A stretch of 43,522 nt of DNA, from the IMG/VR virus record IMGVR_UViG_3300027823_000002, positions 1 through 43,522 of that record; one strand, written 5' to 3'. This stretch comes from a virus. The notes beneath the pieces were generated by a model. That model made no database searches. It worked only from the letters and a program-made list of their open reading frames with translations, and had not been told where the DNA came from. Positions 12,696-37,466 of the stretch are shown here, one piece after another. The translations under genes were made by a program, and so were the position numbers. Position 1 is the stretch's first letter, and every line of letters starts with the position of its first letter.

Positions 12696-13409
12696 TTATT
12701 TCACCTTGTAAACAACCGCGCATCGGCAGTTGATAATGTTTGCAGCAGAACCAGACGGATCGCCGGGGAACATGAGCTCCTCGCCGTCAACAATAAAAGG
12801 CTCATCCAAATCCACGGTTTGTCCATCCGCTTCATTATGCGCTGGCCTTGTTCTATCATCTTCAGCTGATACCCAAACCTTTTTCAAAACAACACCGACA
12901 TTTTTAGCCACTTCTAATTGGCCCGCTTGTGCTGCTGCTTGCGATTCTGTTCTCGCAATAGTGGTAGCGCGCGCGCCTCCAACATAACGCCGCAATTCAT
13001 TGACTAAATCGGCTGTGGATCCGCTGGTTTCCGCGTTGCGCTGGATGGCTTTGTTGATTCGTTTCCTGGTGGAGTCGGATATCTCGGTGACCTTTAAGCC
13101 AGACCACTTGCCTGCGAATTCGCTCGCTGCTAATTCAAAGGAATCGTCTTTGAATTCCAAATTGAGGTAACCGAGTGACTTCAATTCGGGGCGCATTTTA
13201 TTTCCGGCCATGCGGAATGCTTTTATGTAAAAAGCAAAAAGTAATCCGCGGAGCCTATCCTCGTGCCCCCATATTGCAGTATGCGCATCGCCCGCTTTCT
13301 TGATTTGGTAAATCAAGATTCTGAATTCTCGCACAAGCTGGACCCGGAGCGTCTTCTCTAATGAGCGACGCACTAAATCCTGCCGGCGTAATTCGGAGCG
13401 CTTACTCAT
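12696..13409 (-). CDS. MuF-like head morphogenesis protein
   Basis: A 237-residue minor head protein of the Mu gpF / SPP1 gp7 type, a few copies of which bind the portal inside the head. The C-terminal domain shows the family signature: A-R-T-E-S-Q-A-A-A-Q near 155, then W-V-S-A-E-D-D-R-T-R-P-A-H and a closing N-C-R-C. Two starts are possible: 13427 or the Met at 13409, the latter giving an 8-base overlap with the portal gene, which I prefer. No toxin domain is fused to it, unlike some long MuF proteins. Confidence 0.88.
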   Translation of the reverse strand: MSKRSELRRQDLVRRSLEKTLRVQLVREFRILIYQIKKAGDAHTAIWGHEDRLRGLLFAFYIKAFRMAGNKMRPELKSLGYLNLEFKDDSFELAASEFAGKWSGLKVTEISDSTRKRINKAIQRNAETSGSTADLVNELRRYVGGARATTIARTESQAAAQAGQLEVAKNVGVVLKKVWVSAEDDRTRPAHNEADGQTVDLDEPFIVDGEELMFPGDPSGSAANIINCRCAVVYKVK

Positions 13410-30126: not shown

Positions 30127-32210
30127 GACCCGCAAAGAAAAAAGTGGACTATAATTTGGCGGCAATCATGAATACGTTTGGGGCCAACATTGAAGAGTCG
30201 GCCGACGTTGAGTGGAATGGAGATTGTTTAATTTGCGGCGGCAAGAAAAAGGTTTGGGTAAATACCGACAAGCAGCTTTTCGATTGTAAGGTCTGCGGCG
30301 CTACGGGTAACGTCTACAGCTTTTACAAATTATTCCACGCGGCTTGCGCGGCTAAACCACCCGGCCTTGCGGATTGGCTAAAGCTTTCAGAAAGCCGCGG
30401 CATTCCTAAGTATGTTCTTGAAAAATTCGGCTTGGTTCGGCGCAAGTCAGAATGGTATCTGCCCATCCGTGGCTATACCGGAAACATTGTCGATTTGCGC
30501 CGGTACGCTTTGAATAAATTGCTGTCGGCAAAGGGTTCTGAATTATCGCTGTGGAATGCCGACTCGTTAAAGGACTTAAAGAAACCCACAACGGTTTGGT
30601 GGTGCGAAGGCGAGTGGGACGGAATGGCGGTGTGGTGGTTTTTGGAAAAGCTGAATATGCTGGACGACAATGTTGTCGTTGCAGTTCCCGGCGCGGTTAC
30701 TCTCAAGCCCGCGTGGATGGACTGGATTAAAGGCCACCATGTAATTGCCCTGTACGATAATGACGAGGCTGGGATTAAGGGTGAGCGGAAAGTAGCGGAG
30801 CGGTTCAAGGGCATTGCTAAAAGCGTCAAGTATGTGCATTGGCCTGCGTCCAAGCCGAACGGCTACGACGCTCGCGATTACATAACTCAAGGCTTTGCAA
30901 ACAATGAGACACCCGAAAATTTACTTGCGGCTTTGAAGGTAATAATAAAAAATAGCTGCCGCTTTGACATGCGCGAAGGTGCGGGAGAAGCAGCCGAAGC
31001 ATTGTCATCGGCGGACGCAATTAATTTCGAGGGCTTGCTTGCGGCTTTTGAAAAGCGTATGAAAATGACAACCGACTTGCGGCAGGCGTTGCACATATGC
31101 GCGGCCGTTTGTTTGTCTATAGATATTCCCGGCGATCCAATATGGCTTTATCTAGTCGGAGCTCCGGGCTTCGGTAAGACAATGATTCTCGGCTCGACAG
31201 CCGACTCGGAGCGCTGCGTACTGCGGTCCACCGTAACCGCGCACTCGTTTGTTTCTGGGTGGCGTGGCGAAGGCGCAAATGATCCGAGTTTAATTCCCAA
31301 GCTGGTTGGCAAGACGTTTGTGTGCAAAGACTTTACCGAAATTTTGACTATGCCTAAAATTGCGCAAGACGAGGTTTTCAGTACTCTCCGCGGTGCATAC
31401 GACGGCGTGGTCCAGAAAACATTTGGCAATGGCGTTACGCGCGAATATAAAGACTGCCGCTTTGCATTGTTGGCCGGCGTAACGCATTCAATTAATGGTC
31501 ACAAGCAAAGCTCTATGGGAGAGCGCTTTTTGAAATTCCAAATGCGGCGAATGGAAGGGAAGCAAACCGAAGACGTTATCGATGCCGCGATTGCATCCGT
31601 TGGTAATGAAGCAACCACCGAAGCCGAGCTGCGTGATGCCTTTACTAAATTCTTGTTAAATAAAATCGACATTGAAAACCTTCCGACATTCGCCGACCGA
31701 CTGAAGAATAGGCTTCGCGGCCTTGTTCAATTAATTGCTTTCTTGCGAGCTCAAGTTGAACGGAACGAGCGGACAAACAATGTGATCTTTCGGCCTGAAC
31801 CAGAAGCAGGCACGCGCTTAGCCAAGCAGTTAACCAAGCTGGGAATGTGCTTGGCTGTGGTCAAGCGCGAGGATACAATTACGGAAGAAACCTACAATCT
31901 TCTGGAGCGTGTGGCATTGGATACTGCCGTCGGTTTTCACTTGGATATTGTGGACATTGTTGTCAAGCACAATGGACCGATCGACCGCGAAAGTCTTGGC
32001 AAATTAGCGGATATATCCTACGGTGCTATCGGCAGTTATTTAGAGGATTTGATTATGCTGAAAATCGTTATCGAAACCAAGCAGAATGATAAAGTATCGG
32101 TTGGACGTCCCAAACGATTTTATCATTTAACCCCAACCCTGGAGCGACTATGGAAACAAACCAAAGGTATGCAAACGACCCTCAAGCTAAAGCGGTCGCG
32201 AGCTTCATAA
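30123..32210 (+). CDS. Bifunctional primase-helicase
   Basis: A 695-residue protein. The N-terminus has a zinc-binding motif C-x2-C (35, 38) and C-x2-C (55, 58). A TOPRIM domain follows with W-C-E-G-E-W-D-G (near 158-165) and L-Y-D-N-D-E-A-G (near 209-216). The second half is a P-loop ATPase with V-G-A-P-G-F-G-K-T-M (Walker A, near 344-353). The C-terminus looks like a winged helix. It should both prime and unwind at the fork, like other phage primase-helicases. The ATG overlaps the polymerase stop by 4 bases. Confidence 0.92.
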   Translation: MRPAKKKVDYNLAAIMNTFGANIEESADVEWNGDCLICGGKKKVWVNTDKQLFDCKVCGATGNVYSFYKLFHAACAAKPPGLADWLKLSESRGIPKYVLEKFGLVRRKSEWYLPIRGYTGNIVDLRRYALNKLLSAKGSELSLWNADSLKDLKKPTTVWWCEGEWDGMAVWWFLEKLNMLDDNVVVAVPGAVTLKPAWMDWIKGHHVIALYDNDEAGIKGERKVAERFKGIAKSVKYVHWPASKPNGYDARDYITQGFANNETPENLLAALKVIIKNSCRFDMREGAGEAAEALSSADAINFEGLLAAFEKRMKMTTDLRQALHICAAVCLSIDIPGDPIWLYLVGAPGFGKTMILGSTADSERCVLRSTVTAHSFVSGWRGEGANDPSLIPKLVGKTFVCKDFTEILTMPKIAQDEVFSTLRGAYDGVVQKTFGNGVTREYKDCRFALLAGVTHSINGHKQSSMGERFLKFQMRRMEGKQTEDVIDAAIASVGNEATTEAELRDAFTKFLLNKIDIENLPTFADRLKNRLRGLVQLIAFLRAQVERNERTNNVIFRPEPEAGTRLAKQLTKLGMCLAVVKREDTITEETYNLLERVALDTAVGFHLDIVDIVVKHNGPIDRESLGKLADISYGAIGSYLEDLIMLKIVIETKQNDKVSVGRPKRFYHLTPTLERLWKQTKGMQTTLKLKRSRAS

Positions 32211-32653
32211 CAATGATCGGCGCAACCGCAATGATCGATATCCTCAGAATGGAAAAATCTGTAGCATCGAATCATGAATTGATTTTGGCAGGCGACCGAT
32301 GCCAAACAATGTCGAATGAATTTGCGAAGAGGTATAAAGCCTGCCCCGGTGACGAGCGCTTATTGCGCGCGCGTTTATTACTGGAGGAGCTGGGCGAATT
32401 ACTGCTTGCAATGGCTGCATCGGACGAAGTCCAGATGGTTGACGCCATTGCGGATTTGGCCTATGTGACAATCGGCACAGCGGTTACCTTCGACCTGCCA
32501 TTTGCCCCCGCGCTCGCGGAAGCACATCGATCGAATTTAACTAAGGACTCGCACGTCGACCACGCCGCAGGAATTAAAGGCAAGGGCGAATCGTTCAGCC
32601 AGCCGGATTTTCAAGCCGTTCTCATAGCGCATAGAATGGGCAAATACCAATGA
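32150..32653 (+). CDS. MazG-like nucleotide pyrophosphohydrolase
   Basis: A 167-residue protein with the all-alpha NTP pyrophosphatase pattern: L-L-L-E-E-L-G-E-L-L (E-E-x-x-E near 82-86) and a second helix V-D-A-I-A-D-L-A-Y-V (near 97-106), which together bind magnesium. It would cleave dNTPs or (p)ppGpp-like nucleotides, fitting the nucleotide block. The start at 32150 has GGAG upstream but overlaps the primase-helicase by 61 bases; an ATG at 32213, just after the primase stop, is the alternative. Confidence 0.82.
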   Translation: METNQRYANDPQAKAVASFITMIGATAMIDILRMEKSVASNHELILAGDRCQTMSNEFAKRYKACPGDERLLRARLLLEELGELLLAMAASDEVQMVDAIADLAYVTIGTAVTFDLPFAPALAEAHRSNLTKDSHVDHAAGIKGKGESFSQPDFQAVLIAHRMGKYQ

Positions 32654-33111
32654 GCAGTATCCGCACCTCTAGCGAAACCATTGAGCAGTCGATTTTCAAG
32701 GTGACCAAGCTGTGGGCTGAAATGCGCAGCAAGGATCCACGCACAAAAGTAGGCGCCGCAATTTACGACCCAGAGAATGGCGGCTTGTTTTTGGGTTACA
32801 ACGGATTTGCCAAGGGTCTTCCCGATGAAGCCTACATGTGGGAATCCCCGCTAAAATATGATTATGTAATTCATGCCGAAATGAATGCATTAATTAAAGC
32901 GCTTTTGAGCGGTGCCGACATTAAAACCTGTTGGCTTGTGTGCACGCATCTGCCCTGCGAGAAGTGCATTCGCGACGTCGTTGCTGTGCACAAGCCCTGC
33001 CGCTTATTGTATGGCAACGGTAATTCTAATCTCCACGGATCGAACACTTTAGCATTTGCAAAAACCATTTGCGATACCCTCCACATCAGCCTCGAAGCCC
33101 TTAAGGAATAA
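32650..33111 (+). CDS. dCMP deaminase
   Basis: A 153-residue zinc-dependent deaminase converting dCMP to dUMP. The signature is H-A-E-M-N-A (about residues 75-80, zinc His and catalytic Glu) and L-P-C-E-K-C (near 101-106, zinc cysteines), with the dCMP-type G-Y-N-G-F segment near 54-58. It supplies dUMP for the thymidylate synthase-family enzyme encoded directly downstream. The ATG overlaps the MazG-like gene by 4 bases. Confidence 0.93.
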   Translation: MSSIRTSSETIEQSIFKVTKLWAEMRSKDPRTKVGAAIYDPENGGLFLGYNGFAKGLPDEAYMWESPLKYDYVIHAEMNALIKALLSGADIKTCWLVCTHLPCEKCIRDVVAVHKPCRLLYGNGNSNLHGSNTLAFAKTICDTLHISLEALKE

Positions 33112-33115
33112 GCCC

Positions 33116-34072
33116 GTGATTAACGCATACCCAACCGTCGACCATGCTTGGCGCGGTGTCATTAATGATATTTTAGCAAAGGGCAGACATACGCCGTCGC
33201 GCGTTGGCGACTGCTTAGAAATTCTCGGCTACACTGTCACAATCGAAAATCCAAGCTACAGAATGCTGATGAACCCGCGGCGCAAAATGTCTCGCAAATA
33301 TGTCGGCGCGGAATTCTTTTGGTACTTCGCGGGCGAGAAATCGATTGCTCGATTACTTCCTTACGCGCCTACATACGGGCGCTTTACCAATGACGGTAAA
33401 GAAACAACCGGTGGCTACGGTTGGCGCATGAGCGGTAATTCTTTCGGCGGCGCCAATCAATTCGTTGACGTCTATTCTATTCTGTCGGAGATAAAAGAAT
33501 CCCGCCAATGCGTCATCAGTATTTGGAATCCGCAGGATCTTGCGGTTGCCCGCGTCGGTGGTTGCAAAGATACGCCGTGCGCATTAAATCTCCAATTCTT
33601 TATTCGAGATAATAAATTGCACATGGTTAGCTATATCCGATCCAACGACGTGTGGCTCGGTATGCCTTATGACTTCTATTGCTTTATGAGCATTCAATCG
33701 GTTCTCGCCACCGCGCTTGGTATCGGCATGGGTACCTACACGCACACAATCGGCTCCGTGCATATTTATTCCAAATATCTTACCAACTGCGAAGAAGCAT
33801 TGTCCCCACCGCTCCCAGGAAACGAAGCTGAAATTGACGAGCGCATGTCTTCGTCGTTATTTTCGTCGAACACAATCCTCAACGGCTCGGCGCGAATTTT
33901 CGAAATGCACGCGGCGTTGCATACTACCGCGGACACGTATGCCGGTGAGAGTAGTGATAATTGGATTGAAGATATGTTCACGGCTTGCGCCCTCGCACTG
34001 AGTGGCTTGTCCGACTGCACCTTCGATCGGAGTGTGCTTAATCAACCCGCTATCTTTGGAGAAATCACATGA
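33116..34072 (+). CDS. Thymidylate synthase-family enzyme with Asn-to-Asp substitution (possible dCMP-acting)
   Basis: A 318-residue enzyme. The catalytic Cys is C155 (D-T-P-C-A). Spacing to R175, D178, H216 and Y218 equals E. coli ThyA C146, R166, D169, H207 and Y209 without gaps. At the place of ThyA N177, which reads the dUMP base, there is D186 (G-M-P-Y-D-F). In T4 dCMP hydroxymethylase the equivalent is Asp, and it selects dCMP. This enzyme may therefore make 5-methyl- or 5-hydroxymethyl-dCMP rather than dTMP. The start is GTG at 33116 behind TAAGGAATAAGCCC; the open frame from 33056 overlaps the deaminase gene. Confidence 0.9.
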   Translation: MINAYPTVDHAWRGVINDILAKGRHTPSRVGDCLEILGYTVTIENPSYRMLMNPRRKMSRKYVGAEFFWYFAGEKSIARLLPYAPTYGRFTNDGKETTGGYGWRMSGNSFGGANQFVDVYSILSEIKESRQCVISIWNPQDLAVARVGGCKDTPCALNLQFFIRDNKLHMVSYIRSNDVWLGMPYDFYCFMSIQSVLATALGIGMGTYTHTIGSVHIYSKYLTNCEEALSPPLPGNEAEIDERMSSSLFSSNTILNGSARIFEMHAALHTTADTYAGESSDNWIEDMFTACALALSGLSDCTFDRSVLNQPAIFGEIT

Positions 34073-34617
34073 AGCACCGCATTATGATCGAGGGCGCTGA
34101 CACGCTCGGCAAAACAACTGCTATGGATACTGCACGCGCGAAGCTGCAGCATAAGCAAAGCGGCATTGCTCCGAGCCATCGCAAAATGGGATTGCCGGAA
34201 GCAGAATGGTCCGAATCCGATTGGCTGCACTGGGCTTCCAGGGAGGACAGCTGCTTTGTTGATCGCGGTCCATTGAGTGAAATTATTTACGGGCATGTTG
34301 CTCGTGGTCGCGCAGCATTAAGCTCACCAGGATTTATGCTTGCCCTGGGAATGCTCGCCCGTGCCCAGTACAGAATTGTCATAGTCACTGCGCCGTCATT
34401 TGTGTATGGTGACATTCTGGCGAAGCGATACGATGCTAGCCGAGAGGCTTTCGATAAGCCAACCATTCTGAAAGTGAATAATTGCTACCGGCGATTAGCT
34501 ACAACAGGCATTTTCAGAGACTATGAGATTCCGGAGTGGTTCCTGAAAAATCACGTCATTCACATTGACATAAAGTCAGTCGAGTCATTCCCCTCAATTT
34601 CGGATTTAATTCAATGA
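34069..34617 (+). CDS. Deoxynucleoside monophosphate kinase-like P-loop protein
   Basis: A 182-residue kinase of the thymidylate kinase-like fold. The P-loop is E-G-A-D-T-L-G-K-T-T (residues 8-17); V-D-R-G-P-L-S-E (near 64-71) matches the D-R motif; K-R-Y-D-A-S-R-E may be the lid. It probably phosphorylates the product of the preceding thymidylate synthase-family enzyme, with which it overlaps by 4 bases. A modified pyrimidine monophosphate is a possible substrate given that enzyme's Asp residue. Confidence 0.85.
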   Translation: MKHRIMIEGADTLGKTTAMDTARAKLQHKQSGIAPSHRKMGLPEAEWSESDWLHWASREDSCFVDRGPLSEIIYGHVARGRAALSSPGFMLALGMLARAQYRIVIVTAPSFVYGDILAKRYDASREAFDKPTILKVNNCYRRLATTGIFRDYEIPEWFLKNHVIHIDIKSVESFPSISDLIQ

Positions 34618-36301: not shown

Positions 36302-36448
36302 ATGTACACAATCTCCGGCCGTCTTCGCTCCGTCCGCCTTGGCAACCACCTCACTGAAAGGGGCCGCGGTATTCTCCGCCTCCTCCCCTTCCAGGAAAGA
36401 ATGAAATTCCTTCGCCGCATGCGTCGCATTATTGTTGGCGTATTTTGA
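36302..36448 (+). CDS. Very small Arg-rich protein
   Basis: A 48-residue frame with the phage's standard TAAGGGAATAAGC site before its ATG. The product is Arg-rich and helical (G-R-L-R-S-V-R-L, R-G-I-L-R-L-L, F-L-R-R-M-R-R-I-I-V). Such a peptide could bind RNA or lie on a membrane. The close fit of spacing and ribosome-binding site to its neighbours supports it as a real gene. Confidence 0.65.
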   Translation: MYTISGRLRSVRLGNHLTERGRGILRLLPFQERMKFLRRMRRIIVGVF

Positions 36449-36494
36449 ACCACCCCCCCGCCGAATTACTCGGCACCGTCCCGAAAGGACCGCA

Positions 36495-37166
36495 ATGAAG
36501 TTTGCATTTATCCCCCACCCCATCACCAAAGACGGTGACACGGAAACCATTACCCTCGAAGTCGGTCGTTATGGCGATCAAACGAAAACCATTAAAGTGG
36601 TTTGGACTCGAATCAAGGGAACTGATTGGAGCAATGCCCGCGTGCTCGGGGTTTCCGCACTCCACCAAGTGCTTGCTGTGGCCGGATCGAATATGCGCAC
36701 GCTCGCAAAATTCGTTGAAGATCACGAGCTCGACATGGACGATCCGGATGCTTTGATTAGCATGATCGAGCGCGAAGGCGGTTCTTGTTATGTGCGCAAC
36801 GCCGCTGGGCAGCTGGTTTGCTATTCCGACGTCTCAAAGAATGGCGACCGCAAAGAATTCATTACCACCACCGCCGCTGGTATGAACCACGAATACTCCG
36901 TATTCGCCGAGGATGAAGATCGCGCGAAGGCGATGGTCACCCGCTTGCTTGTGTCGGGCGCGGAGGATAACGATGCGCTTTATGATGAGCTTAAGCATTG
37001 GGGCAAAGCCGGAAAGCCGATCAAAGAAGTTGAAAAGAAATCAACTGTCAAAGCTCCCGACCTTGGGCTCTACTGCAAGCGCGGCCATCAGCGCAAAGCC
37101 CTTGCAATGAAGCTGAAATTGAAGGAAAAAGTCAAAGAGGGCGGCGACGCCAAACCTACGAAGTGA
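36495..37166 (+). CDS. Hypothetical protein upstream of the hammerhead ribozyme
   Basis: A 223-residue protein of unknown function. The start is fixed by CGAAAGGACCGCA before the ATG at 36495. The N-terminal 45 residues look beta-rich, followed by helices; C-Y-V-R-N-A-A-G-Q-L-V-C-Y (near 98-110) is a strand pair with two cysteines. The C-terminal 40 residues are Lys-rich. Its stop codon lies 2 bases before the first stem of the hammerhead ribozyme, so self-cleavage would leave that structure on its 3' end. Confidence 0.82.
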   Translation: MKFAFIPHPITKDGDTETITLEVGRYGDQTKTIKVVWTRIKGTDWSNARVLGVSALHQVLAVAGSNMRTLAKFVEDHELDMDDPDALISMIEREGGSCYVRNAAGQLVCYSDVSKNGDRKEFITTTAAGMNHEYSVFAEDEDRAKAMVTRLLVSGAEDNDALYDELKHWGKAGKPIKEVEKKSTVKAPDLGLYCKRGHQRKALAMKLKLKEKVKEGGDAKPTK

Positions 37167-37167
37167 C

Positions 37168-37225
37168 TTCTACCTGAGGAGGCTGGATGGGTACCAGCCG
37201 AAACCGTCGGGAGACGGTCGTAGAA
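37168..37225 (+). ncRNA. Hammerhead ribozyme, type I
   Basis: All core elements are present in order. Stem I 5' strand TTCTAC (37168-37173); catalytic CTGAGGA (37174-37180); stem II GGCTGG/CCAGCC (37181-37186 / 37194-37199, 7-base loop); GAAA (37200-37203); stem III CCGTC/GACGG (37204-37208 / 37213-37217, loop GGGA); TC (37218-37219) completing GUC; stem I 3' strand GTAGAA (37220-37225). Predicted cleavage is after C37219. Every invariant position of the hammerhead consensus (CUGANGAG, CGAAAC, GUC) is matched. Cleavage would leave a 5'-OH mRNA with a 25-base leader containing AAGGAG for the gene at 37245. Confidence 0.92.
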
Positions 37226-37244
37226 ACCCTACAAGGAGATTATC

Positions 37245-37466
37245 ATGGTAAGCAAATGGGGACAGCGCGGAACATTCTTGGAGGCGGATTTGAAAGCCGC
37301 AGCCGATGCTTATTCCGCCGGGCTTGCTGGATGCTCGGGCATTCCTATTTCATTGACCGAGGCGGCGTCCATGGTGCCCTGTGACAGGCTCCACTTGATG
37401 CGCTACCTGCGAGCTCACAAAAAACCTATCCGCGCGCGGGGTCGACCTGTGGACGGTGAATTGTGA
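37245..37466 (+). CDS. Hypothetical protein downstream of the hammerhead ribozyme
   Basis: A 73-residue protein of unknown function. Unlike most genes here it has a classical ribosome-binding site, AAGGAG, 7 bases before the ATG. The sequence S-L-T-E-A-A-S-M-V-P-C-D-R-L-H-L-M-R-Y-L (about residues 36-55) looks like a helix-turn-helix, and the Arg-rich tail fits DNA binding; this is inference. Its mRNA would begin 25 bases upstream after ribozyme cleavage. Confidence 0.82.
   Translation: MVSKWGQRGTFLEADLKAAADAYSAGLAGCSGIPISLTEAASMVPCDRLHLMRYLRAHKKPIRARGRPVDGEL

What the first reader, a model, noticed from the sequence alone, without database searches (positions are those of the whole stretch)
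37168..37225. Consensus hammerhead ribozyme inside a phage early operon
The sequence folds into three stems around the invariant core CTGAGGAG, CGAAAC and GTC, with perfect pairing in stem I (6 bp), stem II (6 bp) and stem III (5 bp). It begins 2 bases after one stop codon and ends 19 bases before the next ATG. Hammerheads are known from some phages and bacteria (established), but here it would split a polycistronic mRNA between two unknown small genes. That would leave a 5'-OH end with a 25-base leader bearing the operon's only clear AAGGAG site. This suggests post-transcriptional separation of upstream and downstream expression (inference).
Basis: partly seen in the sequence, partly recalled or inferred. 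Interest (0 to 1): 0.92.

Follow-up and report, generated by a model that had tools for sequence, protein, structure and literature searches.

The report
Phage hammerhead ribozyme between two genes
A small self-cutting RNA (a type I hammerhead ribozyme) lies between two genes of an uncultivated bacterial virus; it is very probably real, and it belongs to a large, little-catalogued group of phage ribozymes that sit at gene junctions and probably cut long viral messages into separate ones.

Summary
Window 37168-37225 (+) is a complete type I hammerhead: core CUGAGGA/GAA/GUC, stems 6/6/6 bp, cleavage after C37219. None of 4000 shuffled windows gave one as good. Rfam 15 misses it. It also misses every one of dozens of similar phage hammerheads, so that negative reflects weak models. 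A covariance model built from 29 other phage hammerheads, window excluded, finds the window at 57.9 bits, E 2.9e-16, as its only hit. The same model finds the PaP3 phage hammerhead, which is reported active in vitro (PMC3088659). Loop II GGGU (37189-37192) can pair with ACCC (37226-37229); the family supports this pseudoknot. 84% of 147 family members lie exactly between two genes, against 7% of random positions. Cleavage leaves a median 26-nt leader to the next ATG; the window has 25. Most likely it cuts a polycistronic phage mRNA. "Freeing" the ribosome-binding site is not supported. The kind was described in 2011 (Perreault et al.). What seems less known is its abundance, its strict junction geometry and the frequent use of the core UGA as a stop codon. 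Activity is inferred, not shown.

The parts
37164..37166 (+). stop codon (TGA) of the upstream gene (36495 or 36432 to 37166; 223 or 244 aa, no known family)
37168..37225 (+). type I hammerhead ribozyme, whole
37168..37173 (+). stem I, 5' strand (UUCUAC; the conserved part is CUAC 37170-37173)
37174..37180 (+). core box CUGAGGA (N7 = G, the only G among 155 members)
37181..37199 (+). stem II hairpin GGCUGG-AUGGGUA-CCAGCC
37189..37192 (+). GGGU in loop II, 5' strand of the proposed pseudoknot
37200..37202 (+). core GAA
37203..37218 (+). stem III hairpin ACCGUC-GGGA-GACGGU; becomes the 3'-end hairpin of the upstream product
37219..37220 (+). predicted cleavage site, between C37219 and G37220
   Evidence: position of C17 by homology
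37220..37225 (+). stem I, 3' strand (GUAG + AA linker); first bases of the downstream product
37226..37229 (+). ACCC, 3' strand of the proposed pseudoknot
37233..37238 (+). Shine-Dalgarno AAGGAG of the downstream gene
37245..37466 (+). downstream gene, 73 aa, unknown family; low-confidence three-helix model

Best explanation
It is a self-cleaving type I hammerhead ribozyme that acts in cis on a polycistronic phage mRNA. As the junction is transcribed, three stems form around the CUGAGGA/GAA core, and loop II docks on the ACCC just downstream of stem I. The chain is cut after C37219. The upstream message keeps its whole reading frame and stop codon and ends in the stem II and stem III hairpins with a 2',3'-cyclic phosphate. 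The downstream message starts with a 5'-OH at G37220 and a short 25-nt leader holding AAGGAG. The role is processing: it fixes the ends of two messages, so that each can be translated and decay on its own without a host nuclease, much as RNase III cuts T7 early mRNA at gene junctions. Shown here: sequence, structure class, family relation, junction geometry, support for the pseudoknot. Inferred: self-cleavage, end chemistry (established for hammerheads), and the effect on stability and expression.
For: Complete consensus core and stems, 0 of 4000 shuffles as good. Independent covariance model hit, E 2.9e-16, unique in the window. Relatives: 134 of 141 pattern matches in viral contigs form all three stems, while in bacterial and archaeal genomes there were 120 pattern matches and only 30 hammerheads with all stems. 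On 144 distinct sequences 97.8% of paired cells are standard, 13 of 15 pairs show changes on both sides, covariation 0.695 against 0.151 shuffled and at most 0.091 for slid controls. Pseudoknot: 24 of 50 members with short stem I have 4 or more Watson-Crick pairs, permutation mean 6.5, maximum 14 in 500; register peaks at stem I + 2. Geometry: stop codon and ATG flank the ribozyme in 124 of 147 (7% at random positions), leader median 26 nt. All 25 loci with several ribozymes carry them on one strand, median spacing 600 bases, about a gene. The model finds the PaP3 ribozyme, listed among active hammerheads in PMC3088659; tandem prophage arrays cleave in vitro and in E. coli, and a halovirus early mRNA 5' end maps within 3 nt of a hammerhead site.
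Against: No cleavage or transcript data for this phage. In native context the predicted free energy favours a competing fold by about 4 kcal/mol (-30.9 against -26.9, pseudoknot not counted), in which CUACG 37156-37160 pairs with CGUAG 37219-37223; only 8% of relatives have as large a gap. N7 is G, seen in no other of 155 members, although position 7 is described as a spacer (PMC4075628). The phage has no close relatives, so conservation at this very junction could not be tested. It is single here, while many relatives carry arrays. In the 2011 study, 4 of 18 consensus-like hammerheads showed no activity.
Confidence: 0.85

Rival explanations
1. Regulated ribozyme: cleavage is switched by translation of the upstream gene or by a competing fold. 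The site strand CGUAG can pair with an upstream decoy CUACG (37156-37160, in the last codons of the upstream gene) or with CUAC 37229-37232; a ribosome on the last codons would mask the first decoy.
For: Three CUAC copies lie around one GUAG; the competing fold is predicted about 4 kcal/mol better than the hammerhead in context; in 39 of 147 relatives the upstream stop codon is the UGA of the core itself.
Against: Short repeats of 4 bases are common by chance; 5'-terminal hairpins are only mildly enriched in the family (5 bp or more: 20 observed, 8.5 expected); stop codons in the core may only reflect compact packing; energy rules ignore the pseudoknot.
Confidence: 0.15
2. Cleavage unmasks the ribosome-binding site of the downstream gene, so the ribozyme is an on-switch for that gene.
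For: AAGGAG lies 13 nt after the cut; across 134 relatives the start region is slightly more open after cleavage (0.62 against 0.57).
Against: The average effect is small, and in the window the start region is no more open after cleavage (0.48 against 0.51).
Confidence: 0.07
3. The ends serve RNA ligation: the 5'-OH and cyclic phosphate feed a ligase to make circular or trans-spliced RNA.
For: Hammerheads leave the right ends, and arrays flank single genes in relatives.
Against: Only one ribozyme in this window; Perreault et al. looked for spliced or circular products and found none.
Confidence: 0.04
4. A decayed or chance hammerhead without function.
For: N7 = G is unique in the set; competing folds; no conserved copy at this junction could be examined.
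Against: All invariant core bases and every stem pair are intact, standard junction geometry, 0 of 4000 shuffles.
Confidence: 0.05

Closest known systems
Phage and prophage hammerheads of Perreault et al. 2011 (PMC3088659), including Pseudomonas phage PaP3
   Same: Core, three stems, loop II to 3'-tail pseudoknot (PaP3: UGAU/AUCA), position between a stop codon and the next Shine-Dalgarno site; our model finds the PaP3 ribozyme at 49.5 bits, E 2.9e-13.
   Different: Window has N7 = G and a short GGGA-capped stem III; PaP3 has a long stem III and is listed as a core variant.
HHphage of haloviruses HF1 and HF2
   Same: Hammerhead a few nucleotides upstream of an early replication gene; mRNA 5' end maps to the cleavage site in vivo (PMC3088659).
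   Different: Archaeal virus; core variant resembling one that needs high Mg2+; there it precedes the first gene of the transcript.
Rfam RF00163 Hammerhead_1 and RF03152 RAGATH-1 hammerhead
   Same: Same core and three-way junction.
   Different: Window does not reach the gathering score of either; loop and tail features differ.
RNase III processing sites of T7 early mRNA (from own knowledge)
   Same: Cuts a phage polycistronic mRNA at gene junctions, leaving hairpins at 3' ends.
   Different: Needs a host protein and leaves 5'-phosphate ends; the hammerhead needs none and leaves 5'-OH.

Membership tests
Hammerhead ribozyme (type I) | Invariant core CUGANGA ... GAA ... H17, with A15.1-U16.1 | tested here: met
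Hammerhead ribozyme (type I) | Three stems around the core, stem I open-ended | tested here: met
   6/6/6 pairs; stems covary in relatives
[quoted passage not shown]
   GGGU 37189-37192 can pair with ACCC 37226-37229 in the register supported in relatives, but this is complementarity only; 4 pairs in this register occur in about 8% of permuted members
Hammerhead ribozyme (type I) | Site-specific self-cleavage giving 2',3'-cyclic phosphate and 5'-OH | not testable with these tools
   needs an in vitro transcript
Phage gene-junction type I hammerheads (group modelled here, R1) | Match to a covariance model that excludes the candidate | tested here: met
   57.9 bits, E 2.9e-16; PaP3 as positive control
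Phage gene-junction type I hammerheads (group modelled here, R1) | Between the stop codon of one gene and the start of the next, leader about 26 nt | tested here: met
   stop 37164-37166, ATG 37245, leader 25 nt
Rfam RF00163 Hammerhead_1 (as curated) | Score at or above the gathering score of 34 bits | tested here: not met
   a relative scores 25.1, and 15 loci rich in relatives give no hit
Rfam RF03152 RAGATH-1 hammerhead | Score at or above the gathering score of 56.3 bits | tested here: not met
   16.7 bits, E 1.6

The most novel reading that the evidence does not exclude
Type I hammerheads are a general punctuation system of many phages: one ribozyme per gene junction cuts operons into single-gene messages with uniform 5'-OH leaders, and the embedding of the upstream stop codon in or beside the catalytic core couples cleavage to translation termination. 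The window is one such site, with decoy CUAC copies that could make its cleavage depend on ribosomes.
Probability: 0.2. Interest if true: 0.75.

Novelty: new member of a known kind. Interest (0 to 1): 0.48.

Why it matters
If it cleaves, this phage uses RNA rather than a nuclease to define message ends. The wider result is that such ribozymes are very common in viral contigs, sit at gene junctions with a narrow geometry, and are missed by current Rfam models, so annotation pipelines overlook them. The open question of what bacterial and phage hammerheads are for becomes testable in cultured phages such as PaP3.

Tried and rejected
Rfam gathering and E-value searches: no useful hit; shown to be model weakness. 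Search for relatives of this phage by the upstream gene, primase, DNA polymerase and terminase: no close relatives in IMG/VR, only distant terminases; distant phages with related terminases carry no such ribozyme in the stretches held (best E 0.65). A second hammerhead-like site in the window (type II, 12855-12918 -) is at chance level and is not found by the model. Ribosome-binding-site release: not supported. 5'-terminal hairpin GUAG/CUAC after cleavage: present but only mildly enriched in the family, so not claimed as a function. Promoter and terminator scan around the site: no more than shuffled sequence gives, uninformative. AlphaFold model of the 73-aa downstream protein: pLDDT 48, not used. 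The MAFFT alignment does not keep the pseudoknot in register, so it was tested by permutation instead.

Full report
Observation. The bases 37168-37225 read TTCTAC CTGAGGA GGCTGG ATGGGTA CCAGCC GAA ACCGTC GGGA GACGGT C GTAGAA. This is a complete type I hammerhead, with the open end on stem I. The stop codon of the upstream gene ends at 37166 and the next ATG is at 37245, so the cut after C37219 would leave 25 nt before the start codon. In 4000 Markov shuffles of the window, on both strands and with all three topologies allowed, none reached the same stem lengths.

Rfam. No family reached its gathering score. The best hammerhead match was RAGATH-1 at 16.7 bits, E 1.6, and RF00163 gave nothing in the window. 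Rfam found none at gathering score in 15 of these loci, which hold dozens of them. RF00163 gave 25.1 bits against a cut-off of 34 for one. The negative is therefore a limit of the models.

Independent model. I built a covariance model from 29 relatives, excluding the window. Its only hit in the window is 37170-37237, 57.9 bits, E 2.9e-16. As a positive control it finds a hammerhead in phage PaP3 (49.5 bits, E 2.9e-13), lying just after the stop codon of ORF67 and just before a Shine-Dalgarno site. Perreault et al. list the PaP3 ribozyme among active hammerheads (PMC3088659). On 144 distinct family sequences the stems covary strongly; that alignment was fitted to the structure, but the shuffled and slid controls are far below. 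The retrieval pattern fixed the core and part of stem II but not stem I, whose four pairs are 100% standard with many double changes.

Tertiary contact. In members with a short stem I, loop II is complementary to bases just after stem I: 24 of 50 have at least 4 Watson-Crick pairs, against a permutation mean of 6.5 and a maximum of 14 in 500. The register peaks two bases after a 4-bp stem I. In the window this is GGGU 37189-37192 with ACCC 37226-37229, if stem I is CUAC/GUAG followed by an AA linker. A pseudoknot of this kind was shown by mutation and rescue to speed cleavage in a type II hammerhead (PMC3088659).

Position and role. Of 147 family members away from contig ends, 124 have both the stop codon of a long upstream frame within 30 bases and an ATG of a downstream frame within 60 bases; random positions in the same loci and strand give 7%. 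The distance from cut to ATG has a median of 26. In 39 cases the stop codon is the UGA of the core. Where a locus has several, all are on one strand, median spacing 600 bases. So, where both genes can be called, the cut falls between reading frames and gives the downstream gene a short leader. Downstream genes are mostly small and unknown; the commonest recognised class is ArdC-type anti-restriction protein, 4 of 94, in line with the ardA association reported earlier. I take mRNA processing as the best explanation. Release of the ribosome-binding site is not supported.

Caveats. Activity is not shown. N7 is G only here; position 7 is regarded as a spacer. A competing fold is predicted to be about 4 kcal/mol better in native context, without the pseudoknot being counted. 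The phage has no close relatives, so this very site could not be followed in evolution.

Place among known things. The defining sequence and structure features of a type I hammerhead are met; cleavage could not be tested. The kind is known since 2011, including the idea that phage transcripts are cut into gene-length messages and a halovirus case with a mapped 5' end. I found no later paper in the open library that treats the phage group as a whole, but subscription papers are missing, so priority for the family-level points is not claimed.

Noticed in passing
L265 386-437, 2146-2200; L266 183-236, 393-444, 2147-2203: Streptomyces phages R4 and Paedore (cultured) carry type II hammerheads at successive gene junctions; a further similar site at about 1500 in both has a mismatched first stem II pair.
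   Followed up: partly
39 of 147 family members in the viral loci L008-L127: The upstream gene's stop codon is the UGA of the hammerhead core CUGA, so coding and catalytic constraints share bases.
   Followed up: partly
L076, L086, L108, L069, L049, L112, L122: Arrays of 4 to 7 hammerheads at consecutive gene junctions of one phage contig, all on one strand.
   Followed up: partly
Rfam RF00163 and related models: Rfam 15 detects none of dozens of phage type I hammerheads at gathering score, so annotation misses them.
   Followed up: yes
L134, L138, L141, L155, L168, L203: Nostoc and Anabaena genomes carry type I hammerheads whose loop II and 3' tail look complementary and differ between loci (AACCC with GGGT, AACACA with TGTGT).
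   Followed up: no
window 32150-34617 (+): Nucleotide pyrophosphohydrolase, dCMP deaminase, thymidylate synthase-like and weak thymidylate kinase-like genes in a row suggest altered pyrimidine metabolism, perhaps a modified DNA base.
   Followed up: no
window 37156-37159, 37170-37173, 37229-37232: Three CUAC copies surround the single site-strand GUAG; they allow alternative pairings before and after cleavage.
   Followed up: partly
window whole: A tailed-phage genome (terminase, portal, head, tape measure on - strand; replication genes on +) with no close relative in IMG/VR or GenBank phages; nearest terminase 47.5% identical, MW202897 from a spring.
   Followed up: partly
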